Source of the DNA: Hydrogenophilales bacterium
GTDB lineage: Bacteria; Pseudomonadota; Gammaproteobacteria; Burkholderiales; Thiobacteraceae
Direction of reading: 5' to 3'
Length of the DNA stretch: 41,738 nucleotides
NCBI GenBank assembly: GCA_016235775.1
Contig: JACRIU010000109.1
Location: 1 to 41,738, forward strand
The notes under the pieces are model-generated. The model worked only from the letters and a program-made list of their open reading frames with translations. It was not told the DNA's origin and did not search any database. This document shows positions 9,924 to 30,879 of this stretch, piece by piece. Position 1 is the stretch's first letter. The number at the start of each line of letters is the position of its first letter. The translations under genes were made by a program, and so were the position numbers.

Positions 9924-11285
9924 TCACTCCGCCTCCAGCTCATACCGCTTGAGCTTGCGCCACAGCGAGACGCGGTCGATGCCGAGGATTTGCGCGGCCT
10001 GGGTCTGGTTGCCGCCGGCTTCTTCCAGCACCCAGCGGATGTAGTCTTTCTCCTGCTCTTCCAATGATGGAATGCGGCCGTCTTTTTTGCGGAAGGTGCG
10101 GATGGACAGGTCGCGCAAATCCTCGGGCAGGTGCGCGGCTTCGATCACCGCGCCGGTGCTGATGGCCACGCCGCGCTCGATGATGTTTTCCAGCTCGCGG
10201 ATATTGCCCGGAAACTCGTAAACCTTGAGCAGTTCCAGGGCGTCGGGCGCGATTTCCGTCACGTCTTTTTTCATCAGCGCGGCGTATTTTCTGAGGAAGT
10301 GGTAAGCCAAGAGCGGCACATCCTCTTTGCGTTGCGACAGCGGCGGGATGTGCAGGTTGACCACGTTCAACCGAAAATATAAATCCTGGCGGAAGCCGCC
10401 TTGGCGCATCATGTCCTGCACGTCGCGGTTGGTGGCGGCGATGAAGCGCACGTCCACTTTGATCGGCACGGTGCCGCCCAGGGGCAGCACTTCCCGCTCC
10501 TGTATCACGCGCAACAGCTTCACTTGCATGGCGGGCGACATCTCGGTGATTTCGTCCAGGAACAGGGTGCCGCCGGTCGCTGCTTCCAGCAGCCCTTTCT
10601 TGTCCGTGCCCGCGCCGGTGAAGGCGCCCTTGGTGTGGCCGAACAATTCGTTGGACAGCAACTCCTCGTTGAACGCGCCGCAGTTGACCGCCAGGAACGG
10701 CCCCTCGCTGCGTTCGCCGTGGGCGTGCAGATAGCGTGCGAATAATTCCTTGCCGGTGCCGGATTCGCCGGTGATCAGGATGTTGCAGCCGGTGGGCGCG
10801 ACCTGGCGCGCCATTTCCAGCAGGCGCTGCACCTTGATGTCCTGGGTGATGATTTTGACCTTGCCCTGAAAGCTTTCCACCTGCTCGCGCAGGCTGCGGT
10901 TCTCGCGCTTGAGATGGATTTTTTCCACCGCCTCGGCCACCACTTTCCGCACTTCGTCCAGGCGGAACGGCTTGGCGATGTAGTAAAACGCGCCGTGCTT
11001 CATCGCCTCCACCGCCGATTCCAGTGTGGCGTAGCCGGTGATCAGCACCACTTCCGTATCGGGACAGGCCTCGCGGCATTTGCGCAGAATCTGCATGCCG
11101 TCCACTTTCTCCATCCTGAGATCGGTGAGCACCACGTCGAAGGGCTGCTTCTCCAGAAAGGCCAGGGCATGCGCGCCGCTCTGGGTCGCGGTGACTTCAT
11201 AGCCTTCCTTCTTCATGACGTGTTCCAGATTCTTGAGGGCGACTTTTTCGTCGTCCACGATCAGCAGTTTTCCTTGGCTAGGCAT
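9924..11285 (-). CDS. Sigma-54-dependent response regulator, NtrC/AtoC family
   Basis: A 453-residue regulator. A receiver domain (residues 1-120) has the acidic pair DDE at 11-13 and phospho-acceptor D55 in VVLTDLRM. The central AAA+ domain carries Walker A GESGTGKE, the sigma-54 contact motif GAFTGA and Walker B GGTLFLDEI. A C-terminal Fis-type helix-turn-helix follows (GNQTQAAQILGIDRVSLWRKLKRY). The frame is open farther upstream, but the ATG at 11285 gives the canonical receiver N-terminus (KLLIVDDE) and overlaps the kinase stop by 8 bp, the usual arrangement for a cognate pair. It should activate an RpoN promoter; the best candidate is the one at 12967 in the divergent spacer before the SulP operon. 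Confidence 0.93.
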   Translation of the reverse strand: MPSQGKLLIVDDEKVALKNLEHVMKKEGYEVTATQSGAHALAFLEKQPFDVVLTDLRMEKVDGMQILRKCREACPDTEVVLITGYATLESAVEAMKHGAFYYIAKPFRLDEVRKVVAEAVEKIHLKRENRSLREQVESFQGKVKIITQDIKVQRLLEMARQVAPTGCNILITGESGTGKELFARYLHAHGERSEGPFLAVNCGAFNEELLSNELFGHTKGAFTGAGTDKKGLLEAATGGTLFLDEITEMSPAMQVKLLRVIQEREVLPLGGTVPIKVDVRFIAATNRDVQDMMRQGGFRQDLYFRLNVVNLHIPPLSQRKEDVPLLAYHFLRKYAALMKKDVTEIAPDALELLKVYEFPGNIRELENIIERGVAISTGAVIEAAHLPEDLRDLSIRTFRKKDGRIPSLEEQEKDYIRWVLEEAGGNQTQAAQILGIDRVSLWRKLKRYELEAE

Positions 11286-12792
11286 GATGTTCTCCCGCCG
11301 GCAGCGGCAGGCGAATGAAGAACGCCGTGCCCTGGCCCGGCTCGCTCTCCACCGCGATGCAGCCGCCGTGTTCTTCGATGATTTCAAAAACGATAAATAG
11401 TCCCAGTCCCGAGCCCTTGCCCACTTCGCGCGTGGTGAAGAAGGGATCGAAAATGCGCGGCAGAATCTCGGGCGGGATGCCCGCGCCGTTGTCCCGAATT
11501 TCGATATCCACCACTTCTCCATGGCCCTCGCAGCGGCCGAAGGCGAGGAAGTGCGCGCCCTTGCCGGAGGGTGCCGAATCGCCCGTTGCGCGCCCCCTGC
11601 GCGCGGTGATGCGGATTTCCCCCGCACCCTCCAGCGCTTCCACGGCGTTCTTGATCAGGTTGAGGAAAACCTGCTGCAAGCGCTGCTTGTCGCCATGCAG
11701 CAGCAGATCGGGCGGAATTTCGGTTGCGATCATCACGCGCGCCGGCACTTGGCCCTTGAGAAAGCGCAGGGTTTCCTCGAACAATTGTGCGAGATGCAAA
11801 GGCTCGGTCTTGAATTCGCGATCGCGGGCAAAATCGAGCAGGGAGCGCACGATGTTGCGCGCCCGGATGGTCTGCTCGTCGATCTGGCCCAGCAGCTCGC
11901 GCCGGAACGCCGGATCGGCCTGATCGCCCTCCTCCATCAATATCTGGCAGGAAGAGGAAATATTGGACAGGGGGTTGTTGAGCTCATGCGCCACGCCGGA
12001 GAGCAGCGTGCCCAGCGCGGCCAGCTTCTCGGCGCGCACCAGATGTGTCTGGCGCAACTCCAGTTCCTGCAGGACATGGTTGAAGGCGTGGGTCAGCGAG
12101 GCGATCTCGCGGTCGTCGCTCTCCCGCTCAAGCTGCGTCAGGCGGCCCTGGGCCACCGCCTCCATATTGTCCTCCAGGCTTTTCAGCGGCCGCGCCACGC
12201 GCCGCGACAAGAGCTGGCCGATGACGACCACCGCCAGCACCAGCACCGCGATCGAGATCACCAGCACGCGCCGGTGCCGGTCGAGAGAGGATTGCAGGGA
12301 AGTGCGCTCGGTGCGGGCGATTTCCTCGGCCAGCGTGACGATCTCTTTGCCGGCCTTGCGGATGCGCATTTCCAGCGCCTCGGTGCGCGCCGTGCCCGCG
12401 TCGCCCAAGCTCTCGTATTCACCCATCAGGACGGTATATTGCGCCAACTCGTCTTGCAGAACGGCGATCCGCGCAGCGCTGGCGATGGCGTCGAACACGC
12501 CGTGATTCTCCCGCAGCAGCGCCTGCGCCTGAAGCACATAACGCCGAGTCTCGCTCATATCCGCCGCCTGCCGGTACAGAAAATAATTCTTCTCGAAGCG
12601 GCGAATCTCCAGCGTGGCGTCGAAGAATTCGGAAATCCGCCCGCCGGCCAGAATCTTGTTCTCGATCAGCCGCAACTCCACAAAGGCAAACAGGGAAAGG
12701 CCGACGATCAGGGTGCCGACGGCGTAATAGCCGAAGGTGATTTTTTGGCGCAGGGAATTCATGGGGCACCAGAATAATTTAAATAATTGCAT
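11278..12792 (-). CDS. Membrane sensor histidine kinase
   Basis: 504 residues from the ATG at 12792; the next Met (12762, MNSLRQKITF) is an equally good start. Membrane segments at about 19-39 and 176-196 flank a helical periplasmic sensor domain of about 135 residues, rich in charged coiled-coil positions and without a recognised ligand motif. A HAMP linker follows, then a HisKA domain with H269 in GVAHELNNPLSN, an N box (NLIKNAVEAL), and G boxes DNGAGIPPE and GKGSGLGLF. It overlaps the response regulator gene and should phosphorylate that protein. The signal is unknown; the neighbouring transporter suggests an anion or envelope cue. Confidence 0.92.
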   Translation of the reverse strand: MQLFKLFWCPMNSLRQKITFGYYAVGTLIVGLSLFAFVELRLIENKILAGGRISEFFDATLEIRRFEKNYFLYRQAADMSETRRYVLQAQALLRENHGVFDAIASAARIAVLQDELAQYTVLMGEYESLGDAGTARTEALEMRIRKAGKEIVTLAEEIARTERTSLQSSLDRHRRVLVISIAVLVLAVVVIGQLLSRRVARPLKSLEDNMEAVAQGRLTQLERESDDREIASLTHAFNHVLQELELRQTHLVRAEKLAALGTLLSGVAHELNNPLSNISSSCQILMEEGDQADPAFRRELLGQIDEQTIRARNIVRSLLDFARDREFKTEPLHLAQLFEETLRFLKGQVPARVMIATEIPPDLLLHGDKQRLQQVFLNLIKNAVEALEGAGEIRITARRGRATGDSAPSGKGAHFLAFGRCEGHGEVVDIEIRDNGAGIPPEILPRIFDPFFTTREVGKGSGLGLFIVFEIIEEHGGCIAVESEPGQGTAFFIRLPLPAGEHHA

Positions 12793-12799
12793 TTTGCAA
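12787..12799. promoter_or_regulatory. Candidate upstream activator site 1 (TTGC-N5-GCAA)
   Basis: TTGC-ATTTT-GCAA, a perfect 4-bp-arm palindrome overlapping the start of the kinase gene. The same pattern recurs at 12876-12888. It lies about 180 bp upstream of the sigma-54 promoter that serves the SulP operon, within the normal distance for an enhancer-type activator site. Confidence 0.45.
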
Positions 12800-12848
12800 C
12801 ATACGGCCCATCCAATGCAACACTGCGTAAAAGACTAAAACTTAATGG

Positions 12849-12864
12849 GGCAGGCAAGCCTGCC
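12849..12864. repeat. Small palindrome in the kinase/SulP divergent spacer
   Basis: GGCAGGC-aa-GCCTGCC, a 7-bp perfect palindrome, lies between the two candidate activator sites. It resembles common short intergenic palindromes more than an operator. Confidence 0.4.
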
Positions 12865-12874
12865 GGTTTCGATT

Positions 12875-12889
12875 GTTGCTATATGCAAC
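12875..12889. promoter_or_regulatory. Candidate upstream activator site 2 (GTTGC-N5-GCAAC)
   Basis: GTTGC-TATAT-GCAAC, a perfect 5-bp-arm palindrome of the same TTGC-N5-GCAA form as at 12787, centred about 90 bp upstream of the sigma-54 promoter. Two matched copies at this distance fit binding of the adjacent Fis-type response regulator. Assignment to that regulator is inference. Confidence 0.5.
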
Positions 12890-12966
12890 TATTTATGACT
12901 TAAATAAATCATGGCCAATGAGCATTATTTCCGTTTAATTCATATGCTTGAAGATGATTTTCAAGG

Positions 12967-12983
12967 CTGGCACGAAAACCGCT
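12967..12983 (+). promoter_or_regulatory. Sigma-54 (-24/-12) promoter for the UspA-like/SulP genes
   Basis: cTGGCACG-aaaa-CCGCT matches the RpoN consensus TGGCACG-N4-TTGC with invariant GG at 12969-12970 and GC at 12981-12982, exactly 10 bp between them. Transcription should begin near 12994, only about 3 nt before the ATG at 12997. A CTTGAA-N7-TTCAAG inverted repeat (12947-12965) abuts it upstream. Confidence 0.65.
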
Positions 12984-12996
12984 ATGTAAAAAAACC

Positions 12997-13380
12997 ATGA
13001 CCCGCCAGGAACCGGAAAAAAAAGTGCTGCTTGCCGTGCGCGAAAACTGCATCGACCAGCGCCTGCTCACCTCCGCGCTCAATCTGTGCAAAAGAATGGA
13101 TGCGGGCCTGGAGATTTTAGCTATCGTCAAGGGTGAAACACTGCCTCAGCCCTTGCAGGTGCTGTTGGAGGCGTTGCGCGAGGAAGGGCTATATTTCAAC
13201 TTGACGCGGAAACCGGATTTGCGGCGCCGCGACATCGTGGATTACGCCAACACGCACGAGTGCATTTCCGCCGTGGTGATCGATTCCCTCGAGGGCTGGG
13301 AAACCCTGGCCCAGGACCGAAGCAGCGACCCCTGGAAAAAACTGGAATGCCCCTTGGTTACCGCCACACCCCGCAAATGA
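12997..13380 (+). CDS. Small universal-stress-like cytoplasmic protein
   Basis: A 127-residue soluble protein. The start KKVLLAVRENCID followed by a helix and LEILAIVKG resembles the first beta-alpha-beta unit of the universal stress protein fold, and the C-terminal part has the strand AVVIDSLEGWE; the glycine-rich nucleotide loop of ATP-binding Usp proteins is not seen. It precedes the SulP gene by 12 bp on the same strand and likely shares its sigma-54 promoter. The ATG at 12997 lies almost at the predicted transcript start and has no Shine-Dalgarno, so translation may be leaderless or begin at the GTG at 13024, which has GGAA 6 nt upstream. The family assignment is moderate. Confidence 0.65.
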   Translation: MTRQEPEKKVLLAVRENCIDQRLLTSALNLCKRMDAGLEILAIVKGETLPQPLQVLLEALREEGLYFNLTRKPDLRRRDIVDYANTHECISAVVIDSLEGWETLAQDRSSDPWKKLECPLVTATPRK

Positions 13381-13392
13381 AATTGGACAAAC

Positions 13393-15564
13393 ATGCCCAG
13401 CGAAATCGCCGAAAAACTTTCAACGACCCGAGTCAACCTCATGTCACCCGCTAAATTCCTGCCCTTCCTGAAATGGTTTCCGATCCGCGGCGACGCGATC
13501 CGCGCCGATCTGCTCGCCGGCATCACGGTCGCGCTGGTGCTGATTCCGCAATCCATGGCCTATGCGCAACTGGCGGGGCTGCCCGCCTATTACGGCCTGT
13601 ATGCGGCCTTCCTGCCCGGCATCATCGCCGCCTTGTGGGGTTCGTCCGCGCAGTTGGCCACCGGGCCGGTGGCCGTGGCCTCGCTCTTGACCGCCTCAGC
13701 ACTCGCGCCCCTGGCCGCGACCGGCTCCGAAGCTTTCGTCGCGCTCGCCATTTTGTTGGCGCTGCTGGTGGGCATCGTGCAATTGACGCTGGGCGTATTC
13801 AAGCTCGGCGTGGTGGTGAATTTCCTCTCGCACCCGGTGATTGTCGGCTTCACCAATGCCGCCGCCATCATCATCGGCCTGTCGCAGCTCAACAAGATTT
13901 TCGGCGTCTCCATGGGGCGCAGCGAACATTTCATCAATGACATCTGGGGCGTGCTGCTGCAAATCGGCGAAACCCATGTGCCGACCCTGCTCATGGGCGT
14001 CTCCGCTTTCGCCATCATGTGGGGGCTGAAGAAATATGCGCCCAAGCTGCCCGGCGTACTGATCGCCGTGACGCTGACCACGGTCGTGAGTTATTCGATC
14101 GGCTTCGAGCGCAACAGCGTGGGCCGGGTCGAGCAGATCATGGACAGCGAAGTCCGCACCCTCGCCGGCGATTTTTCGGGCACCGAGCAAAAAATCGGCG
14201 AGATCAATCAGCAGATCAGCGCCAAATCGGCTGCGATCAAAACCCAGGAAAAAGCCGAAAAAGAAACCAACCAGCACCTTGCCGCGCTGCATTATGAAGT
14301 CGAGTTGCTGCGCCTGAGTTTGACCGATCTGGAAGCGGAAAACCGCAAGCGCAACCGGGCGTTGCGCAAATTCATCCTCGAACGCGTGCCCGGCGCCGCG
14401 GGGGAATCCGACCGCCTGTATCTCCAAGGGCAGACGCCGCGCGATTTGAAATCCGATGGCCATCGCTGGCGCATCAAGAAGATCGGCCAGGGCGAAATCA
14501 AGCTGGTCGGCGGCGGCGAAGTGGTGGGCGGCATTCCCTCCGGCTTGCCCAGCCTCGAAGTCCCCAAGATCAGTTGGGATCTGATCGGCGCCCTGCTCTC
14601 CAGCGCCCTGGTGATTTCGTTGGTGGGCTTCATGGAAGCAATCTCCATCGCCAAGGCCATGGCCGCAAAAACCAAGCAGCGCATCGATCCGAATCAAGAG
14701 TTGCTTGGCCAGGGCATCGCCAATATCGTGGGCAGCCTGTCGCAATCCTTCCCGGTGTCCGGCTCGTTCTCGCGCTCGGCGGTGAACTTGAATGCCGGCG
14801 CCAAGACGGGGCTATCCTCGGTGTTCACCGGCCTGATCGTGCTGGTGACGCTGCTGTTTTTGACGCCGCTGCTGTATCACCTGCCGCAAGCGGTGCTGGC
14901 GGCGGTGATCATGATGGCGGTGATCGGCCTGATCAATTTCAAGGCGATCAAGCATGCCTGGCATGCGCACAAGCATGACGGCATCGCCGCCGTCGTGACC
15001 TTCGTCGCGACGCTGGCGTTCGCGCCGCATTTGGACAACGGCATCATGGTGGGCGCCGGGCTGGCGATCATTCTCTATCTGTTGCGCACCATGACGCCGC
15101 GCGTCGCCATTCTCGGTCGCCACGCCGACGGCACGCTGCGCGACGTAAAAGTGCATAATCTGCCTACCAGCGAGCATGTGGTGGCGATCCGCTTCGACGG
15201 TTCGCTCTACTTCGCCAACGTCGCCTACTTCGAAGACGCGATTCTGGAAGCGGCGGCGGACAACCCCAAGGCCAGGTACATTCTGGTGGTGGGCGACGGC
15301 ATCAACCAGCTCGACGCGTCGGGCGAGGAAGTCATTCATCACCTGGTGGAACGGCTGCGCGACAACGGCGTGACGCTGCTGTTCAGCGGCCTCAAAAAAC
15401 AAGTGCTGGACGTCATGGAGCACACCGGTCTGCGCCAGTTGATCGGCGAGGAAAACATCTTCGCCACGGAAGACATGGCGCTGGATGTGGTGTATCGCCA
15501 GGTGTGTGAAATCGATGGCAATACCGAGTTTTGCCTGCTGCGCCCGGCAAGCGGCGCGGCCTGA
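13393..15564 (+). CDS. SulP-family anion transporter with coiled-coil insertion and STAS domain
   Basis: A 723-residue inner-membrane SulP/SLC26 transporter. The signature IPQSMAYAQLAGLPAYYGLYAAFLP-like region (51-75), the QLATGPVAV motif (87-95) and the later VGFMEAISIAKAMA and SFPVSGSFSRSAVN segments are all present, followed by a C-terminal STAS domain (about 575-700). Unusually, about 135 residues are inserted at 240-376, between two membrane segments: a charged, heptad-like helical stretch (EQKIGEINQQISAKSAAIKT and onward) then a short basic segment. Substrates of the family are sulfate, bicarbonate or other anions; the sequence does not decide. The gene follows a small stress-type gene under a sigma-54 promoter. 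A second possible start is at 13441. Confidence 0.9.
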   Translation: MPSEIAEKLSTTRVNLMSPAKFLPFLKWFPIRGDAIRADLLAGITVALVLIPQSMAYAQLAGLPAYYGLYAAFLPGIIAALWGSSAQLATGPVAVASLLTASALAPLAATGSEAFVALAILLALLVGIVQLTLGVFKLGVVVNFLSHPVIVGFTNAAAIIIGLSQLNKIFGVSMGRSEHFINDIWGVLLQIGETHVPTLLMGVSAFAIMWGLKKYAPKLPGVLIAVTLTTVVSYSIGFERNSVGRVEQIMDSEVRTLAGDFSGTEQKIGEINQQISAKSAAIKTQEKAEKETNQHLAALHYEVELLRLSLTDLEAENRKRNRALRKFILERVPGAAGESDRLYLQGQTPRDLKSDGHRWRIKKIGQGEIKLVGGGEVVGGIPSGLPSLEVPKISWDLIGALLSSALVISLVGFMEAISIAKAMAAKTKQRIDPNQELLGQGIANIVGSLSQSFPVSGSFSRSAVNLNAGAKTGLSSVFTGLIVLVTLLFLTPLLYHLPQAVLAAVIMMAVIGLINFKAIKHAWHAHKHDGIAAVVTFVATLAFAPHLDNGIMVGAGLAIILYLLRTMTPRVAILGRHADGTLRDVKVHNLPTSEHVVAIRFDGSLYFANVAYFEDAILEAAADNPKARYILVVGDGINQLDASGEEVIHHLVERLRDNGVTLLFSGLKKQVLDVMEHTGLRQLIGEENIFATEDMALDVVYRQVCEIDGNTEFCLLRPASGAA

Positions 15565-15640
15565 CGGGATTTTTAAAAACATGTTAACCACAAAATTCAG
15601 CAGATCCCTTCCGCTTGTGGGAGGGACTGAGCCGGGTTTT

Positions 15641-15686
15641 GTAGCGCAAGCATCCTGCTTGCATGCCGGCTGGAAGCCGGCGCTAC
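15641..15686. repeat. Cruciform REP-like element
   Basis: Outer arms GTAGCGC/GCGCTAC enclose two perfect hairpins, GCAAGCA-tcc-TGCTTGC and GCCGGCT-gga-AGCCGGC. It lies in the 277 bp spacer between sulP and hyfB. A related element with TAGCGC outer arms and GCCGGC cores is at 36849-36909. The rest of this spacer holds no gene; no convincing sigma-70 promoter for the hyf operon was found. Confidence 0.75.
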
Positions 15687-15841
15687 ACGAGCCCGCTGTC
15701 CTGATGGGTGTGATGGATATGGGTGGGAGCAACACCGTGGGCTGCAACTTGCTGAACTTCGTGGCTAATCAGGAATGTGTTTGGGTGCCCCGTCCCCCCG
15801 TAGTTATTTGCTTTTCTTAAGATAAGATAAAAAACCAAACC

Positions 15842-17866
15842 GTGGAAACCCTGTTGTCCTTGCTTCCTATCGATATCGCGGGCGGAGTCGTCGTGTACTG
15901 GCTGGTGCTGGGCATGCTCTCCCTGCTGCTAAGTGCTTCTCCCAAGCTGATCTCACAAATTATCTTCCCGGCGGGCGCGCTCGGCGCGCTGGTGCTGGCG
16001 GGCGCCGGCTTGGCGGCGCTCGGCCAGGCGCCGAATGTCGCGGTGCTCCCGCTCGGCCTGCCCGATCTGCCCTTCCACATGCGCATCGACGCGTTGTCGG
16101 CGTTTTTCCTTCTGCTGCTGGGCGCTGCCGGTTTTGCGATTTCGGTGTATGGCGCGGGCTATTTCCGGCACATGGAAGCTCGCGCGCTGGCGCTGCTGGC
16201 GCTGGAATACCATGTGTTCCTGGCGAGCATGGCGCTGGTGTTGATGGCCGACGACGCGTATTTGTTCATGGTGGCGTGGGAGTCGATGGCGCTCTACTCC
16301 TATTTCCTGGTCACCACCGATCACAAGGTGCCGGAGATTCGCAAAGCGGGTTATCTCTATCTGCTGATTGCGCATGTGGGCGCCATCAGTATTCTCTTGG
16401 CCTTCGGCGTGATGCAAGGCGGCCATGGCATTGCGGCGTACACCTTCGACGCCATGCGCGCCGCGCATCTGACGCCGTTCTGGGCTTCGATCACATTCTC
16501 GCTCGCGCTATTCGGTTTCGGCGCCAAGGCCGGTCTGCTGCCGGTGCATGTATGGCTGCCGGAAGCGCATCCGGCCGCGCCCTCGCCGGTGTCGGCGATG
16601 ATGAGCGGCATCATGTTGAAGACCGCGATCTATGGCTTATTGCGCATCACCTTCGATTTTCTGGGCGGGGAAATTTGGTGGTGGGGCGTGCTCGCGCTGA
16701 CGCTGGGGCTGATCACCGCTTTGTTCGGCGTGATGTTCGCCGCCGTGCAGACCGATATGAAGCGCCTCTTGGCTTATTCCTCGATCGAGAACATCGGCAT
16801 TCTACTGGTCGGCATCGGGCTCGCCATCCTGTTCCACGCCAATGGCAAACAAGCGCTCGCCGCTTTGGCCCTGACCGCCACGCTGTATCACGCCATTAAC
16901 CACGCCTTCTTCAAGAGCCTGTTGTTTCTCGGCACGGGGGCCGTGCTGCACACCACGGGCGAACGCAACTTGGGCCGGCTCGGCGGATTGATCCGGCGCA
17001 TGCCGTGGGTCGCGACCCTGGTCTTGGTGGGCACCCTGGCCATTGCGGGCCTGCCGCCGCTGAATGGTTTCGTCTCGGAATGGCTGCTGTTGCAAGCCTT
17101 CCTGCTCACGCCCGATTTGCCGCAGCCTTATCTGAATATGTTGATCCCGGTGGCAACCGCCGCCATCGCGCTCGCCGCCGCCCTGGCCGCGTATGTGATG
17201 GTGAAGTTCTACGGCATCGTGTTCCTGGGCCAGCCGCGCGATGAAAAGCTCAAGGATGCGCACGACGCCGGCCGGTGGGAGCGTCTGGGGCTGGCCTGGC
17301 TCGCGCTCGGTTGTGTCTTGCTGGGTCTCTTCCCGGTGCAAGTCATCCTGCAATTGGATCATGTGACGCAGGCGCTGATCGGCGACTCCCTCGGCATGAC
17401 CGCCGCCAAAACCGGCTGGCTCTTCCTGACCCCGATCGCGCCGGAACGCGCGAGCTACAGCCCACTCATCTTCCTGCTGGCGATTCTGGTGGTGCTCGCC
17501 ATCACCTTCCTCGCGGTGCGCCGCTTCTATCATGGCCGCCTGCGCCGCGGCCCGGCCTGGGACTGCGGTTTTCCGGAACAAACGCCGCGCATGCAGGATA
17601 CGGCGGAGGGTTTCGGCCAGCCGATCCGGCAAATTTTCGAACCGTTCTTTTTGATCGAGCGTGAAGTGCCCAGCCCCTTCGACCGCGCGCCGCGCTATCA
17701 CGGCCGCAGCGAGGACAAGCTGTGGTACGGACTCTATCTGCCGATCGCGAAAGCGGCGGACAAACTCTCTGGCTGGATTTCCATCCTGCAGCATGGACGG
17801 ATTCATCTGTACCTGATGTACAGCTTCGTCACGCTGCTACTGATGTTGGTATTGGTGAGATGGTAA
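15842..17866 (+). CDS. hyfB: Ehr/hydrogenase-4-like proton-pumping subunit HyfB (NuoL-like)
   Basis: 674 residues, GTG start. A polytopic inner-membrane antiporter-like subunit of the Mrp/NuoL family, as in HyfB/HycC. The core motif GLLPVHVWLPEAHPAAPSPV and the following SAMMSGIMLKTAIYGLLRI segment carry the conserved His, Glu and Lys of the proton path, and an IENIGI segment follows at about 318. It begins a tight operon hyfB-C-E-F-G-I; its stop codon overlaps the hyfC ATG by one base. As the catalytic subunit of this operon lacks Ni ligands, HyfB here serves a proton-translocating complex of unknown substrate. Confidence 0.9.
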   Translation: METLLSLLPIDIAGGVVVYWLVLGMLSLLLSASPKLISQIIFPAGALGALVLAGAGLAALGQAPNVAVLPLGLPDLPFHMRIDALSAFFLLLLGAAGFAISVYGAGYFRHMEARALALLALEYHVFLASMALVLMADDAYLFMVAWESMALYSYFLVTTDHKVPEIRKAGYLYLLIAHVGAISILLAFGVMQGGHGIAAYTFDAMRAAHLTPFWASITFSLALFGFGAKAGLLPVHVWLPEAHPAAPSPVSAMMSGIMLKTAIYGLLRITFDFLGGEIWWWGVLALTLGLITALFGVMFAAVQTDMKRLLAYSSIENIGILLVGIGLAILFHANGKQALAALALTATLYHAINHAFFKSLLFLGTGAVLHTTGERNLGRLGGLIRRMPWVATLVLVGTLAIAGLPPLNGFVSEWLLLQAFLLTPDLPQPYLNMLIPVATAAIALAAALAAYVMVKFYGIVFLGQPRDEKLKDAHDAGRWERLGLAWLALGCVLLGLFPVQVILQLDHVTQALIGDSLGMTAAKTGWLFLTPIAPERASYSPLIFLLAILVVLAITFLAVRRFYHGRLRRGPAWDCGFPEQTPRMQDTAEGFGQPIRQIFEPFFLIEREVPSPFDRAPRYHGRSEDKLWYGLYLPIAKAADKLSGWISILQHGRIHLYLMYSFVTLLLMLVLVRW

Positions 17867-18819
17867 TGAGCGCGCAACTTTCCGGCATTCTGTTTCAGTT
17901 ATTCCAGTCGCTGCTGGTGGTGGCGATCGCGCCGCTGCTGCTGGGCTGGGTCAATCAATGCCGCGCCTGGCTGCAAAACCGCACCGGCGCCGGCGTGCTG
18001 CAACCCTATCGCACCTTGCGCAAACTGTTCCACAAAGATGCGGTGATTGCGCACAACGCCTCGCCCCTATTCCGGGTGACGCCGTACATTCTGTTCGCCT
18101 GCATGTGGCTGGCGGCGGGCGTGGTGCCGGTGCTGGCGACCGATCTGCCTTTTTCACCGGCGGCTGACGTGATCGCACTGGTCGGTATTTTCGCCTTGGC
18201 GCGCGTGTTTATTGCGCTCGCGGCGATGGATATCGGTACTTCCTTCGGCACCCTCGGCGCACGGCGCGAAATGCTGGTGGCGTTTCTGGCGGAACCGGCG
18301 TTGCTGATGGTGTTTTTTACCGCTTCGCTGATTAGTCATTCCACGCAATTACCCACCATCGTCGAAGCCCTGGCGCATCAACAATTTTCGCTTTACCCCA
18401 GCATGGCGTTCGCCGCGGTGGCGTTCGTGATGATATTGCTCGCGGAAAATGCGCGCATCCCGGTGGACAATCCGACTACCCATCTCGAACTCACCATGAT
18501 CCACGAGGCGATGATCCTCGAATACTCCGCGCGCCACCTGGCGCTGATCGAATGGGCGAGCAGCATCAAGCTGCTGGCCTATACCACCATCGGTTTCGCG
18601 CTGTTTGTTCCCTATGGCATTGCCGAGGCGGGCAATTGGACCGCATTGCCGCTGGCCCTGGTGGCGCTCGGCGTGAAGCTGGCGGCGGCCGGCGCCGGCC
18701 TCGCCCTGCTGGAGACGATTTCGGCCAAGATGCGCATCTTCCGTGCGCCGGAATTCCTGGGCACCGCTTTCCTGCTCGCGGTGCTGGGCATGCTCATTCA
18801 TTTCCTGTTGGGAGCCTGA
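17866..18819 (+). CDS. hyfC: Ehr/hydrogenase-4-like membrane subunit HyfC (NuoH-like)
   Basis: 317 residues from the ATG at 17866, which overlaps the hyfB stop (taATG); the frame is open farther upstream but inside hyfB. A polytopic protein of the NuoH/HycD/HyfC family that anchors the soluble arm to the membrane. Seen motifs: the basic first loop GAGVLQPYRTLRKLFHK, the central DIGTSFGTLGARREM and the conserved acidic loop ENARIPVDNPTTHLELTMIHEAMILEYS (about residues 196-223). It is followed after 1 bp by hyfE. Confidence 0.92.
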   Translation: MSAQLSGILFQLFQSLLVVAIAPLLLGWVNQCRAWLQNRTGAGVLQPYRTLRKLFHKDAVIAHNASPLFRVTPYILFACMWLAAGVVPVLATDLPFSPAADVIALVGIFALARVFIALAAMDIGTSFGTLGARREMLVAFLAEPALLMVFFTASLISHSTQLPTIVEALAHQQFSLYPSMAFAAVAFVMILLAENARIPVDNPTTHLELTMIHEAMILEYSARHLALIEWASSIKLLAYTTIGFALFVPYGIAEAGNWTALPLALVALGVKLAAAGAGLALLETISAKMRIFRAPEFLGTAFLLAVLGMLIHFLLGA

Positions 18820-18820
18820 G

Positions 18821-19483
18821 ATGTCGGTTTCCTTGAGCGGACAATTGATCAACCTGCTGGCGGCGTTGCTGCTCTTGATCGCATTCGGCATGCTCTCCCA
18901 GCGGCGCGTGCTGTCTTTAATCAATTTATTTACGTGGCAAGGCTTCATTTTGTCGATCAGCACGCTGGTGGTCGCCATGAGCACGCAGCAGCAGCACCTG
19001 TATTACTCGGCCGCGCTGACCCTGGTGTTGAAAGTCATCATCCTTCCTTGGATTCTGCATCGCCTGATCCGCAAGCTGAACGTGAAATGGGATGTGGAGA
19101 CGCTCATCAACATTCCCACCACCATGCTGGCCGGCATCGCACTGGTGATTTTCGCCTTCAATCTGGCGCTGCCGATTACGCAGCTTGCCGGCACCATCAC
19201 GCGCAGCACGCTGGGCATCGCCATCGCCATCGTGCTGCTGTCCTTCCTGATGATGCTGACGCGGCGCAAGGCGATTCCGCAAGTGATCGGTTTTCTGGCC
19301 ATGGAAAACGGTTTATTTTTCGCCGCGACCAGCGCCACCTACGGCATGCCGCTGGTGGTGGAACTCGGTATCGCATTGGACGTGCTGGTGGGGGTGTTCA
19401 TTCTCGGCATCTTCTTCTTCCAGATCCGCGAGGCCTTCGACAGCCTCGATCTGAAGCACATGGAAAAACTCAAGGACGAATGA
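18821..19483 (+). CDS. hyfE: Hydrogenase-4 component E-like subunit HyfE
   Basis: 220 residues starting at the ATG directly after the hyfC stop. An integral membrane protein with six to seven predicted hydrophobic segments; the C-terminal half (RKAIPQVIGFLAMENGLFF, then a segment ending VFILGIFFFQIREAF) has the NuoK-like glutamate in a membrane helix, as known for HyfE. It would form part of the membrane arm. The next gene begins 2 bp later with GTG. Confidence 0.9.
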   Translation: MSVSLSGQLINLLAALLLLIAFGMLSQRRVLSLINLFTWQGFILSISTLVVAMSTQQQHLYYSAALTLVLKVIILPWILHRLIRKLNVKWDVETLINIPTTMLAGIALVIFAFNLALPITQLAGTITRSTLGIAIAIVLLSFLMMLTRRKAIPQVIGFLAMENGLFFAATSATYGMPLVVELGIALDVLVGVFILGIFFFQIREAFDSLDLKHMEKLKDE

Positions 19484-19484
19484 A

Positions 19485-20936
19485 GTGGAAATTCTCTGGC
19501 TACTAGGCATTCCCCTATTTGGCGGGATTTTTCTCGCAGCGACGGGCTGCCGCCGTTTCGCGCCCGAGGTGAATTCGGTATTCAGCTTCGCCACCTTCAT
19601 CGCAGCTGCGGTGTTGACGAATCGCATTATCAACGACGGCCCGATCACGGCCTTCAATGAACAGTTCTTTATCGATTCGTTCAATGTGTTCCTGGTGGCG
19701 TTGACCGCCTTCGTCGGCTTCACCACCTCGCTCTTCTCGCGCCCTTATATGCGCATCGAGCAGCATCACGGCAAGCTCACCATCAATATGCAGCGGCTGT
19801 ATCACAGCATGTATCAACTGTTCACCTTCACCATGCTGCTGGCGTTGACCACAAACAACATGGGCATCTTGTGGGTGGCGATGGAAGCGGCGACCTTGAC
19901 CACCGTACTGCTGGTCAGCTTGTATCGCACTCCGGCTAGCCTGGAAGCGGCGTGGAAATATTTCATCTTGTGCGGCGTGGGCATCGCACAAGCACTGTTC
20001 GGCACCATCCTGCTCTACTTCGCGGCGGAGAGGGTGTTGGGGCCGGGCGGAAATTCGCTTTTGTGGACACACTTGAATGCGGTGAAAACACAACTGGAGC
20101 CGACCGTACTGTCGCTGGCCTTCGTGTTTTTGCTGGTGGGCTACGGCACCAAGGTCGGCTTGGCGCCGCTGCACAACTGGTTACCGGACGCGCATGCCGA
20201 AGGCCCGACGCCGGTCTCGGCGGTGCTCTCCGGCCTACTATTGAACGTGGCGCTGTACGCCGTGGTGCGCAGCAAGGTGTTGGCCGATGGCGCGCTCGGT
20301 ACAGATTTCGCCGGTAATCTGATGATGGGCTTCGGCCTGCTGTCGGTGGTGGTGGCGGCATTTTTCCTGTCGCGGCAAAAAGACGTGAAACGCATGTTCG
20401 CCTACTCCTCGATCGAGCACATGGGCTTGGTGACCTTCGCCTTCGGCATGGGCGGGGCGGTGGCCACCTTCGCCGGCTTGCTGCACATGACCGTGCATTC
20501 ACTGACGAAATCCGCGATCTTTTTTGCCGTCGGCCATGCCACACAAACCACCGGCACCCAGCTCATGGAAAATATTCGCGGCTTGATCAAGCAAAGCCCC
20601 ACTGTCGGTTGGGGGCTGATGCTGGGCACGCTGGCGATTTTGGGCATGCCGCCGTTCGGCGTGTTCGCCAGCGAATTTTTAATTCTCACCACCGCCATGC
20701 ATAGCCATCCGTGGGCGACCCCGATTTTATTGTTGGCGCTGGGCGTGGCCTTCGCGTCGATTTTTGCCAAGGTGCAGCCGATGGTATTCGGCGAAACCGA
20801 TTTACCGCGCCTGCCGCACCCGCCGGCATTGGTGCCGGTGTTTGTGTATCTGGCGCTAGTATTGCTGCTGGGGCTGTTCATTCCGCCCTACCTTGCCGGC
20901 TGGTATCAGCAGGCTGCGGCGCTGCTTGGGAAATAG
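19485..20936 (+). CDS. hyfF: Ehr/hydrogenase-4-like proton-pumping subunit HyfF (NuoN/L-like)
   Basis: 483 residues, GTG start 2 bp after hyfE. A second antiporter-like subunit: the signature GLAPLHNWLPDAHAEGPTPV with following LSGLLLNVALYAVVR is at about residues 225-261, and SSIEHMGLVTFAFGMGG follows. Two different antiporter-like subunits (HyfB and HyfF) are the hallmark of hydrogenase-4-type complexes. An interesting variation is Asn in place of the more common Lys in the LSGLLLNVALY helix compared with HyfB (SGIMLKTAIYG). Confidence 0.9.
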   Translation: MEILWLLGIPLFGGIFLAATGCRRFAPEVNSVFSFATFIAAAVLTNRIINDGPITAFNEQFFIDSFNVFLVALTAFVGFTTSLFSRPYMRIEQHHGKLTINMQRLYHSMYQLFTFTMLLALTTNNMGILWVAMEAATLTTVLLVSLYRTPASLEAAWKYFILCGVGIAQALFGTILLYFAAERVLGPGGNSLLWTHLNAVKTQLEPTVLSLAFVFLLVGYGTKVGLAPLHNWLPDAHAEGPTPVSAVLSGLLLNVALYAVVRSKVLADGALGTDFAGNLMMGFGLLSVVVAAFFLSRQKDVKRMFAYSSIEHMGLVTFAFGMGGAVATFAGLLHMTVHSLTKSAIFFAVGHATQTTGTQLMENIRGLIKQSPTVGWGLMLGTLAILGMPPFGVFASEFLILTTAMHSHPWATPILLLALGVAFASIFAKVQPMVFGETDLPRLPHPPALVPVFVYLALVLLLGLFIPPYLAGWYQQAAALLGK

Positions 20937-20945
20937 GCCAGAATC

Positions 20946-22493
20946 ATGCAACTCGAAGACCTGAATATTGAAACGCAAGCACTGCCCGGCGCAATCCCCG
21001 CCTGGCGCGCGCAGATCGCCGCCGACCGTCTGCAGCAGGTGTGCGCGCAAGTACGCGAGAGCGGCGGACGCTTGCTCGCCCTGTGGGGCAGCGACGAGCG
21101 TGCAAACGGAAAAGGTTTTGCGCTACACGTCGCGCTTGCTACCCATCCCGGTTTGTTGGTGCTGAACTTAACGCTCGACGCGAACCAGCCTGCTTATCCG
21201 GACATCGGCGCGATCTTTCCGCAGGCCGAGCGCATGCAGCGCGCCACCTATGACATGCTGGGCCTCGTCGCACAAGACGCGGTGGATCAGCGCAAATGGA
21301 TGCGTCATGGTTGTTGGCCCGAGGGTCAGTTTCCGCTGCGCCGCGAATTCGACTTCACGCAGAAAATGACTGCTGGGCTCGACACCTACCCTTTCATTCC
21401 CGTGGTCGGTGACGGCGTACATGAAATCCCTGTCGGTCCGGTACATGCGGGCACCATCGAACCCGGTCACTTCCGTTTTTCGATCGTGGGTGAACGCGTG
21501 CTGCGCTTAGAAGAGCGGCTCGGCTACAAACACAAAGGTATCGAAAAATTGGCCGAGACCATGGGGCTACTGCAAGGCGCCAAGCTCGCCGGCCGCGTCT
21601 CGGGTGACTCCACTTGCGCTTACGCCTGGGCCTACGCCATGGCGCTGGAGAGCATGACCGGCGTTACGCCACCGCCGCGTGCTTTGCTGCTACGCGCCCT
21701 GCTGTTGGAGCGCGAGCGCATTCACAATCATCTAGGCGACTTGGGTTATCTCGGCAACGATGTGGCGCTGTCCTTCGGCTTCGCGCAGTTCTGGATTTTG
21801 AAAGAGGACGTGCTGCGCGCCAATGGCGAATTATTCGGCCACCGTTATCTGATGGATCGCATTATCCCCGGCGGTGTAGCCTGCGATCTGCCCCCGCAAG
21901 GCAAAGCACGCTTGCTGGCGGAAGCAGAACACTTGGAGCAGGAAATAGGCACGCTACGCGCCATCTACGAAGAGCACGCCGGCGTGCAGGACCGCTTCCT
22001 CACCACTGGCCGCGTCTCGCCCGACCGCGCGGCCAAGCTGGGGCTGACCGGACTACCCGGCCGCGCCAGCGGCCAAGCCTGGGATCTGCGCGCGCAATAT
22101 CCCTGCGCGCCTTACCACGAATTGGATGTGCGCATGGCCACCCATCGCAACGGTGACGTGGCGGCACGCTCGATTGTGCGCATCGAAGAAATCTTGGAAT
22201 CGCTGCGCCTGACGCGGCTGATTTTGGACAAGCTGACCGATGGCCCGTTCAGCGTCGCTGTGCCGCAAGCACCGGCTGGCAGTTACGGTATTGGCATGGT
22301 GGAAGGCTGGCGCGGCGAAGTGTTGATTGGATTGCAAGCAGGCGCAGACAATCGCATTGCGCGCATGCACCCACATGATCCTTCCTGGCAAAACTGGCCC
22401 GTGCTGGAACACGCGGTGATCGGCAATATCGTGCCCGATTTCCCACTGATCAATAAATCGTTCAACTTGAGCTATACCGGACAGGACTTGTAG
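20946..22493 (+). CDS. hyfG: Ehr large subunit, HyfG-like, lacking the Ni-binding cysteines
   Basis: 515 residues: a NuoC-like N-terminal domain (about 1-115) fused to a NuoD/hydrogenase large-subunit domain (about 145-515), as in HyfG/HycE. Family blocks are clear: VGPVHAGTIEPGHFRF, ERLGYKHKGIEKLAE, and RERIHNHLGDLG. The first Ni-site motif, normally RxCGxC, reads RVSGDSTC at 217-224, so both ligand positions are Ser. The second, normally DPCxxC near the C-terminus, reads KSFNLSY at 504-510, again without Cys, and the protein ends five residues later with no cleavable tail. It therefore cannot hold a NiFe centre. This identifies an energy-converting-hydrogenase-related (Ehr) complex. Confidence 0.9.
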   Translation: MQLEDLNIETQALPGAIPAWRAQIAADRLQQVCAQVRESGGRLLALWGSDERANGKGFALHVALATHPGLLVLNLTLDANQPAYPDIGAIFPQAERMQRATYDMLGLVAQDAVDQRKWMRHGCWPEGQFPLRREFDFTQKMTAGLDTYPFIPVVGDGVHEIPVGPVHAGTIEPGHFRFSIVGERVLRLEERLGYKHKGIEKLAETMGLLQGAKLAGRVSGDSTCAYAWAYAMALESMTGVTPPPRALLLRALLLERERIHNHLGDLGYLGNDVALSFGFAQFWILKEDVLRANGELFGHRYLMDRIIPGGVACDLPPQGKARLLAEAEHLEQEIGTLRAIYEEHAGVQDRFLTTGRVSPDRAAKLGLTGLPGRASGQAWDLRAQYPCAPYHELDVRMATHRNGDVAARSIVRIEEILESLRLTRLILDKLTDGPFSVAVPQAPAGSYGIGMVEGWRGEVLIGLQAGADNRIARMHPHDPSWQNWPVLEHAVIGNIVPDFPLINKSFNLSYTGQDL

Positions 22494-22495
22494 CC

Positions 22496-23008
22496 ATGTA
22501 CCAAATCCTGAAACAGATTCTGAAAACCGGCATCAAGACCGAGCCGCATCCTGTTGCCGATGACGCACTCCGAACTGAAGCGCAAAGCCTGCAAGCGGAA
22601 ATCTTGCGCGTGTTTGGCCAAGCACTCTCCATCCGCCATGTGGATGCCGGGTCGTGCAACGGCTGCGAATTGGAAATCCACGCACTGAACAATCCCTACT
22701 ACAACATCGAAGGTCTGGGCATCAAATTCACCGCCAGCCCGCGCCACGCCGACATGCTGTTGGTGACTGGCCCGGTGGCAAAGCACATGGAAGTCGCGCT
22801 CAAGCGCACTTTTGACGCCATGCCCGAACCCAAATTCGTGGTCGCCATCGGCGATTGCGGCTGTACCGGCGGCATTTTCGGCGAAAGCTATGCCAGCTGC
22901 GGCCGCGTGTCGAACGTCATTCCGGTGGATGCCGCGGTGCCCGGCTGCCCGCCGACCCCCATCGCCATCATGCAAGGCATCCTGGCCGCGATCAGCGCCG
23001 GTAAATAA
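22496..23008 (+). CDS. hyfI: Ehr small subunit, HyfI-like (NuoB-like, [4Fe-4S])
   Basis: 170 residues of the NuoB/HycG/HyfI family, starting 2 bp after hyfG. The N2-type cluster ligands are all present: CNGCELE (about residues 60-66), GDCGCTGGIFG (about 118-128) and PGCPPTP (about 150-156). Thus the complex keeps its proximal FeS cluster although the partner HyfG has lost the NiFe site. No HyfA or HyfH-type ferredoxin subunit is encoded in the operon, so the electron partner is not evident. It is the last gene of the operon. Confidence 0.92.
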   Translation: MYQILKQILKTGIKTEPHPVADDALRTEAQSLQAEILRVFGQALSIRHVDAGSCNGCELEIHALNNPYYNIEGLGIKFTASPRHADMLLVTGPVAKHMEVALKRTFDAMPEPKFVVAIGDCGCTGGIFGESYASCGRVSNVIPVDAAVPGCPPTPIAIMQGILAAISAGK

Positions 23009-26146: not shown

Positions 26147-26162
26147 TGGCACACGGGTTGCT
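26147..26162 (+). promoter_or_regulatory. Sigma-54 promoter of iscS-iscU-erpA-iscA-hscA
   Basis: TGGCAC-acggg-TTGCT, a perfect RpoN -24/-12 element (GG 26148-26149, GC 26160-26161). The transcript should start near 26173, about 60 nt before iscS. Confidence 0.88.
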
Positions 26163-30863: not shown

Positions 30864-30879
30864 TGGCACGCCCCTTGCT
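30864..30879 (+). promoter_or_regulatory. Sigma-54 promoter of nifV-cysE-nifW-fixABCX
   Basis: TGGCAC-gcccc-TTGCT, a perfect -24/-12 element (GG 30865-30866, GC 30877-30878). The transcript should start near 30890, about 30 nt before nifV. Confidence 0.88.

What the first reader, a model, noticed from the sequence alone, without database searches (positions are those of the whole stretch)
12787..12996. Sigma-54 promoter plus paired TTGC-N5-GCAA sites link the two-component system to the SulP operon
The spacer between the kinase and the divergent genes holds a -24/-12 element with exact GG-N10-GC spacing and two copies of one palindrome at about -90 and -180 relative to it. The neighbouring response regulator has the GAFTGA motif required for sigma-54 activation. 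The layout predicts the regulator's binding site directly. Transporters of this family are rarely described as RpoN-controlled.
Basis: partly seen in the sequence, partly recalled or inferred. Interest (0 to 1): 0.62.

Follow-up and report, generated by a model that had tools for sequence, protein, structure and literature searches.

The report
Conserved switch for anion transporter genes
The stretch between a sensor gene pair and a transporter gene cluster holds two copies of a short mirror-image DNA site and a special type of promoter, and the same layout recurs beside the same sensor pair in distantly related bacteria, so it very probably is the switch through which the sensor pair turns the transporter genes on.

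Summary
In detail: palindromes at 12787-12799 and 12876-12888 and a -24/-12 element with exact GG-N10-GC spacing (12968-12983) lie between a kinase/NtrC-type regulator pair and divergent USP-like, SulP and Hyf-like genes. In the window alone neither motif beats chance. Comparison settles it: of 20 loci with the kinase orthologue, 20 carry a strong -24/-12 element and 15 the exact palindrome (shuffles: mean 0.33 copies in all, maximum 3); of 26 further loci not used to form the idea, 16 carry the palindrome; an unbiased dyad scan ranks the motif first in both sets. Sites lie mostly 66-93 and 157-217 bp upstream of the -24; consensus TGTTGCA-www-TGCAACA. The regulator's recognition helix is nearly invariant. 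The SulP link is lineage-specific: the promoter usually reads first into an unnamed ~60-residue protein (34 of 51 loci), then SulP, TauE-type, ChrA or DUF599 genes. In the window's genus that gene is missing and the promoter abuts a degenerate USP gene, predicting a 3-nt leader. The mechanism is textbook; family, motif, small protein and SulP target appear undescribed.

The parts
9924..11285 (-). NtrC-family response regulator (receiver, sigma-54 AAA+ with exact GAFTGA, Fis-type HTH); predicted binder of the palindromes
   Evidence: Pfam Response_reg, Sigma54_activat, HTH_8; start codon and GAFTGA; near-invariant recognition helix GI[DN]R[VSA]SLWRK[LI]K in orthologues
11278..12762 (-). sensor histidine kinase (HAMP, HisKA, HATPase_c; N-terminal sensor part without a Pfam match); conserved start at 12762
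   Evidence: Pfam; alignment of 18 orthologues begins at this methionine
12787..12799 (.). distal palindrome TTGCATTTTGCAA, 181 bp upstream of the -24 and 24 bp from the kinase start; predicted enhancer site and possible autoregulation site
   Evidence: identical in the same-genus genome G003
12876..12888 (.). proximal palindrome TTGCTATATGCAA, 92 bp upstream of the -24; predicted enhancer site
   Evidence: G003 has TTACAATATGCAA at the matching place
12968..12983 (+). sigma-54 promoter element TGGCACGAAAACCGCT
   Evidence: block of 24 bases from TGG identical in G003; equivalents in all 20 discovery loci
12994..12994 (+). predicted transcription start (12 bases after the -12 C)
   Evidence: inference from sigma-54 promoter geometry; not tested
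12997..13380 (+). degenerate universal-stress-protein domain, 127 aa; first gene after the promoter; counterpart of the C-terminal half of fused proteins in relatives
   Evidence: no Pfam match; alignment; AlphaFold2 pLDDT 84; best PDB matches are USPs
13393..15564 (+). SulP-family anion transporter with STAS domain
   Evidence: Pfam and NCBIfam TIGR00815
15584..15768 (.). repeat element with 19-bp terminal inverted repeats between sulP and hyfB; may weaken read-through into hyf
   Evidence: 49 related places in the genome, inverted repeats; absent in G003 and G005
15842..23008 (+). Hyf/Nuo-like membrane complex genes; large-subunit homologue has no CxxC pair

Best explanation
The spacer is the control region of a two-component, sigma-54-dependent switch. 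A membrane kinase senses an unknown signal and phosphorylates the neighbouring NtrC-type regulator. The regulator binds as dimers to the two palindromes (consensus TGTTGCA-www-TGCAACA), assembles its AAA+ ring there, loops to the promoter at 12968-12983 and opens it, giving a transcript from about 12994 that encodes the USP-like protein and SulP and, at least in relatives without the repeat element, the Hyf-like complex. The distal site, 24 bp from the kinase start, probably also tunes expression of the kinase/regulator genes. Shown here: sequence, architecture, conservation, spacing. Inferred: binding, phosphotransfer, transcript, autoregulation, signal.
For: Strong -24/-12 element divergent from the kinase in 20 of 20 discovery loci. 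Exact palindrome in 15 of 20 discovery spacers and 16 of 26 test spacers, against shuffle means of 0.33 and 0.30 copies (maxima 3 and 4); TTGC-N5-GCAA ranks first (in the test set equal first with its inner frame) of all 4-base dyads, in 15 and 16 spacers against at most 5 and 6 for any dyad in shuffles. In the discovery loci the exact palindrome is 143-fold denser in the spacer than elsewhere (20 in 4,926 bp, 8 in 280,829 bp). Flanking and central bases not used for selection are conserved too (T 0.69, G 0.66, central A/T 0.83-0.90). 16 of 20 families have at least one site with at most 1 mismatch. Recognition helix nearly invariant. 19 SulP orthologues without the kinase-divergent spacer: 1 of 19 has an exact palindrome within 500 bp upstream and none has a promoter score of 19.0 or more (discovery loci score 19.8-21.5). 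rpoN present. Own genome: 1 of 18 strict promoter-like sites has the palindromes, this one.
Against: No binding, transcript or mutant data. 8 of 46 spacers have no site with at most 1 mismatch (L083, L210, L216, L218, L219, L222, L235, L240), and L235 and L240 have no credible promoter either. Only 24 of 46 have both a proximal and a distal site at that stringency. The window's -12 element is CGC, not the usual TGC. Five orthologous regulators have EAFTGA, EAYTGA or DAFTGA, so they may activate poorly. The predicted leader is only 3 nt. Many test genomes share one family (f255, 10 of 26), so they are not independent.
Confidence: 0.82

Rival explanations
1. The regulator does act here, but the real target is the first gene (small protein or USP-like protein); sulP and hyf downstream are expressed mainly from their own promoters, so the 'link to SulP' is incidental.
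For: The small gene is the commonest immediate target (34 of 51 loci) while the transporter varies (SulP 11, TauE type 3, ChrA 1, DUF599 without SulP 3, unassigned 2 of 20). L080 has a separate high-scoring -24/-12 before its SulP. A repeat element splits sulP from hyfB in the window.
Against: USP ends 12 bp before sulP starts in the window, and in G003 the gap is also short and sulP-hyfB is about 20 bp. Nearly all downstream genes are inorganic-anion transporter or membrane-protein types, which argues for a functional link.
Confidence: 0.25
2. The palindromes are operators of the kinase/regulator operon alone (autoregulation or another repressor) and the -24/-12 element is a chance match.
For: The distal site is 12-75 bp from the kinase N-terminal end in most loci. 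In L078 and L091 the palindrome lies just before a second SulP with no good -24/-12. The promoter motif alone is no commoner than chance.
Against: The -24/-12 element is present in 20 of 20 discovery loci, and the proximal site is tied to the promoter (66-93 bp), not to the kinase.
Confidence: 0.07
3. Both motifs are chance in an A+T-rich spacer.
For: Window-wide counts match expectation.
Against: Independent test set, unbiased dyad scan and shuffles.
Confidence: 0.01

Closest known systems
NtrC-family two-component activators with upstream activating sites and a -24/-12 promoter
   Same: Domain order, GAFTGA, paired dyad sites upstream, sigma-54 element
   Different: Motif, kinase sensor part and target genes; among the models shown the regulator reaches no NCBIfam equivalog cut-off (best AtoC 467.9 bits, cut-off 714)
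Desulfovibrio vulgaris DVU0539 / DVU0946 regulons (PMC3333781, PMC4641369)
   Same: Two-component sigma-54 activators that share one site type, autoregulate, and drive transport operons; PMC4641369 says nine sigma-54 operons encode TSUP or PSE transporters of unknown substrate (passages and sections read)
   Different: The letters of their motif are in figures and supplements not available here, so identity of motif or proteins was not tested; targets tied there to lactate use
D. vulgaris DVU3305 regulon (PMC3333781)
   Same: Two-component sigma-54 activator beside an operon of membrane and UspA-domain proteins; the paper names orthologues in Thermodesulfovibrio, Thioalkalivibrio and Dechloromonas (passage read)
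   Different: Includes a Lon-domain regulator and has GAFSGA; neither is seen at the window locus
SulP, Chr and DAC transporters of autotrophic bacteria (PMC12628692, PMC10880623)
   Same: Same transporter families discussed as dissolved-inorganic-carbon carriers (passages read)
   Different: By the find calls, 'two-component' is in neither main text and 'sigma' is not in PMC12628692; substrate of the window SulP unknown (BicA model 144 bits, cut-off 880)
TeaD and other transporter-linked universal stress proteins
   Same: USP fold; that TeaD regulates the TeaABC transporter is recalled, its entry title names the TRAP transporter
   Different: Window protein is degenerate, with no Pfam Usp match

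Membership tests
NtrC-family (bEBP) two-component response regulator | Receiver domain, sigma-54 AAA+ domain and Fis-type HTH in one protein | tested here: met
   Pfam matches over cut-off
NtrC-family (bEBP) two-component response regulator | Exact GAFTGA loop | tested here: met
   Window: yes; orthologues mostly
NtrC-family (bEBP) two-component response regulator | Binds the palindromes and activates transcription on phosphorylation | not testable with these tools
   Needs protein and DNA
Sigma-54 promoter | GG-N10-GC with TGGCAC-like -24 and conserved position | tested here: met
   conserved in 20 of 20 discovery loci
Sigma-54 promoter | RpoN in the genome | tested here: met
   PF04552, E 2.3e-66
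Sigma-54 promoter | 5' end about 12 bases after the -12 element, RpoN-dependent | not testable with these tools
   No transcript data
Universal stress protein (Usp) family, for 12997-13380 | Usp profile match | tested here: not met
   No Pfam match; relatives only weak, below cut-off
Universal stress protein (Usp) family, for 12997-13380 | USP fold | tested here: met
   Model pLDDT 84, the six PDB matches with E below 0.001 are all USPs; a fold resemblance, so it is called USP-like and not filed as a member
SulP family, for 13393-15564 | Sulfate_transp plus STAS domains | tested here: met
   (TIGR00815 438 bits, cut-off 380)
[NiFe] hydrogenase, for the Hyf-like complex | CxxC nickel ligands in the large subunit | tested here: not met
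   Five single cysteines, no CxxC in 20946-22493
DVU0539/DVU0946-type regulon | Same binding motif and orthologous regulator | not testable with these tools
   Motif letters only in figures/supplements not held; D. vulgaris genome not fetchable by name here

The most novel reading that the evidence does not exclude
This is one derived member of a widespread, unnamed signalling cassette (kinase, activator, twin TGTTGCA-www-TGCAACA enhancers, sigma-54 promoter) whose ancestral product is a two-part protein, a ~45-residue 'AEAGD' helical module joined to a degenerate USP domain, that senses the cell's state and gates whatever inorganic-anion or bicarbonate transporter is encoded next. Lineages kept one half or the other; the window's genus kept the USP half and now makes it from a nearly leaderless message.
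Probability: 0.3. Interest if true: 0.75.

Novelty: new member of a known kind. Interest (0 to 1): 0.52.

Why it matters
It gives a precise, testable binding site and promoter for an apparently undescribed regulator family found beside transporter genes in the window's order, in other classes of its phylum, and in Desulfocapsa and Thermodesulfovibrionia assemblies. It puts a SulP transporter and a Hyf-like respiratory complex, whose substrate and role are unknown, under a sensory switch, so the inducing signal could reveal what they transport. It also points to a small protein family with no Pfam or NCBIfam entry that is the usual first product of the switch.

Tried and rejected
Motif counts in the window alone were tried first and do not support the finding; they were replaced by comparison. 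A search for a larger regulon in the window's own genome found none: 3 TTGCAN3TGCAA sites, the other two not near a strict promoter-like site; 86 TTGCN5GCAA places against 30 for the reversed control, not followed up one by one. A strict helical-phase claim was rejected: over 64 sites the spacing shows periodicity near 10.2 and 11.2 bp, but over the 34 distinct distances it is weak (best p about 0.01, many periods tried), so I only say that distances cluster. The small gene was sought elsewhere in the window's genome and not found (best E 0.089). The idea that the Hyf-like complex is a hydrogenase was rejected. A tblastn search of plasmids with SulP gave only distant relatives. The PDB search by sequence with the USP alignment gave only a weak match to UspA 3s3t (E 0.0041). 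Paper searches for a published description gave none; only listings were seen apart from the papers named. PMC9045368 was looked at by passages and is irrelevant; PMC6456213 by passages, for background on DVU0539.

Rows dropped before counts: six test loci whose flank was cut by a contig end (L214, L221, L223, L230, L234, L238). Of the 80 loci I examined 15 and did not count them among the 46; of these L093, L095, L102 and L114 have an exact palindrome near the kinase, L094, L095 and L096 a -24/-12 match scoring 20 or more, and most of the others neither. Five of them (L093-L096, L102) are in the 51. The phylum search matched 29 genomes at 31 places; 20 loci were returned, two of them the window and G052 (a discovery genome), so 18 were new. 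The small-gene count of 34 of 51 includes weak matches (E 0.01 to 0.1).

Full report
WHAT IS THERE. The spacer was read directly. Palindromes TTGCATTTTGCAA (12787-12799) and TTGCTATATGCAA (12876-12888) and the element TGGCACGAAAACCGCT (12968-12983) are as described. Left of them, on the minus strand, lie a histidine kinase (11278-12762) and an NtrC-family regulator (9924-11285) with receiver, sigma-54 AAA+ and Fis-type HTH domains and an exact GAFTGA. Right of them, on the plus strand, lie a 127-residue protein (12997-13380), a SulP transporter (13393-15564) and Hyf/Nuo-like genes from 15842. The genome has rpoN.

CHANCE. In the window the exact palindrome occurs twice, which is what shuffles give (2.00), and the promoter pattern is no commoner than expected. 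On its own the observation would be weak. The longest kinase ORF would overlap the first palindrome, but the alignment of 18 orthologues starts at the methionine at 12762, and in L087 the extra upstream codons contain a stop (gone once 11 codons were left off).

DISCOVERY SET. A search of 250 related genomes with the kinase found 81 genomes with a match at E 1e-30; 20 places (window included) match over nearly the full length at 42% identity or more, and all others are shorter kinase-domain matches. I took regions of up to 14 kb around 19 of these plus the window; the remaining region (L092, genome G005) has the SulP-hyf genes without the kinase and without an exact palindrome. In all 20 loci the best -24/-12 match divergent from the kinase scores 19.8 to 21.5 of 22.3. 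The consensus weights are recalled from the published sigma-54 consensus, not from a call. The exact palindrome occurs 20 times in 4,926 bp between kinase and promoter and 8 times in 280,829 bp elsewhere in these loci.

TEST SET. Kinase-profile searches of 369 genomes of the class (15 matches) and 398 of the phylum (29 matching genomes) gave 32 new loci with flanks; 26 had an uncut flank. The motif had been fixed before these were seen. 16 of 26 have the exact palindrome, 29 copies, against a shuffle mean of 0.30 and maximum of 4; for the discovery set 15 of 20, 20 copies, mean 0.33, maximum 3. A scan of every 4-base dyad at every gap from 0 to 12 puts TTGC-N5-GCAA first in the discovery set and equal first (with its inner frame TGCA-N3-TGCA) in the test set; the best dyad of any kind in shuffled sets reached at most 5 and 6 spacers. 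Two test loci, L235 and L240, show neither sites nor promoter.

THE SITE. From 64 sites with at most one mismatch the symmetrised consensus is TGTTGCA-www-TGCAACA; outer T and G (0.69, 0.66) and the A/T-rich centre were not used to select the sites. Distances from the start of a site to the TGG cluster at 66-93 bp and 157-217 bp, with a subgroup at about 66-68 and 118-120 when two mismatches are allowed. 38 of 46 loci have at least one such site and 24 have both classes; by family 16 of 20. In the same-genus genome G003 the distal site and a 24-base block from the -24 are identical to the window although the rest of the spacer has diverged. The distal site is also near the kinase start, 24 bp in the window and within 75 bp in most loci, so autoregulation is likely (inference).

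WHO BINDS. The recognition helix of the regulator reads GI[DN]R[VSA]SLWRK[LI]K or nearly so in almost every orthologue, including those in a Thermodesulfovibrionia MAG (L102), a Desulfocapsa MAG (L095) and Thermodesulfatator autotrophicus (L096). Of 19 SulP orthologues outside the module, 1 has an exact palindrome within 500 bp upstream and none has a promoter score of 19.0 or more. In the window's own genome, 1 of 18 strict promoter-like sites has palindromes within 350 bp, this one. These facts tie the motif to the kinase/regulator pair, not to the transporter.

WHAT IS SWITCHED. Reading downstream from the promoter shows a conserved short ORF in most discovery loci. A profile of 14 of these finds it within 400 bp after the promoter in 34 of 51 loci, and nowhere else in those loci at E below 0.01 except in L093, where the promoter was not placed well. 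Some of the 34 matches are weak (E between 0.01 and 0.1), and 14 of the 34 built the profile, so the count is approximate. It has no Pfam or NCBIfam family. It is absent after the promoter in the window, L088, L073 and L095, and from the window's genome. In L090, L094, L096 and L102 it is fused to a domain that aligns with the window's 127-residue protein; the model of that protein (mean pLDDT 84) has universal stress proteins as its six matches at E below 0.001, among them the KdpD USP domain, an Archaeoglobus USP, TeaD and UspA. So the window keeps the USP half and many relatives keep the other half. Beyond these genes come SulP (11 of 20 discovery loci), TauE type (3), ChrA (1), DUF599 without SulP (3), unassigned (2) (Pfam checked for L074, L075, L084 and L090, the rest judged from the sequences or from tblastn), and Hyf-like genes in 8 of 20.

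THE LEADER. By standard geometry transcription would start near 12994, three bases before the ATG at 12997. L073 has the equivalent ATG 118 bases after its -24, so the window's genus seems to have lost the intervening stretch. The message would be nearly leaderless, or translation would begin at GTG 13024. This is unresolved.

THE OPERON. USP and sulP are 12 bp apart. Between sulP and hyfB the window has an element with 19-bp terminal inverted repeats, related to 49 places in the genome; G003 and G005 lack it and have short gaps. Whether the promoter still serves hyf in this genome is open.

KNOWN AND NEW. The mechanism is that of NtrC-type activators. The nearest published systems I found are DVU0539/DVU0946 and DVU3305 in D. 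vulgaris (PMC3333781: passages and section 9 read; PMC4641369: abstract, sections 5 and 6 and passages read). PMC4641369 reports nine sigma-54 operons with TSUP or PSE transporters of unknown substrate. Their motif letters were not available, so identity with the family here is untested. Nine paper searches of an open-access library found no description of this family, of its motif or of sigma-54 control of a SulP operon, judging by the listings; subscription papers are not covered. I therefore call it a new member of a known kind, with an apparently undescribed motif, small protein and target set.

Noticed in passing
window 15584-15768: Repeat element with 19-bp terminal inverted repeats inserted between sulP and hyfB; related sequence at 49 places in the genome, absent at this place in two same-genus genomes.
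   Followed up: partly
window 13393-15564, residues about 242-373: The SulP protein has a ~130-residue insert splitting the transport domain (Pfam match 37-241, NCBIfam match again from 375) with a weak coiled-coil-type match (ATG16).
   Followed up: no
window 20946-22493: Hydrogenase-like large subunit without any CxxC pair: the Hyf-like complex is not a [NiFe] hydrogenase.
   Followed up: partly
window 26147-26162 and 30864-30879: Two perfect TGGCAC-N5-TTGCW elements, one 86 bp before an ORF that looks like a cysteine desulfurase (26233) and one before a homocitrate-synthase-like ORF (L200), suggesting a sigma-54-controlled nitrogen-fixation-type cluster in the same window; gene names judged by eye.
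   Followed up: no
L102 3282-4017 (reverse-complemented), L225, L226, L231, L233: Two copies of the small 'AEAGD' gene after the promoter, the second fused to a USP-like domain in L102.
   Followed up: partly
L078 and L091, just before the second SulP gene: An exact palindrome lies 71-74 bases before the first matched SulP codon (about residue 21) of another SulP, with no good -24/-12 nearby: possible repression site.
   Followed up: no
L093 21-5890 (reverse-complemented): Two kinase/regulator pairs of related type stand back to back.
   Followed up: no
L079, L081, L082, L086, L210 regulators: GAFTGA is EAFTGA, EAYTGA or DAFTGA in these orthologues, unusual for working sigma-54 activators.
   Followed up: no
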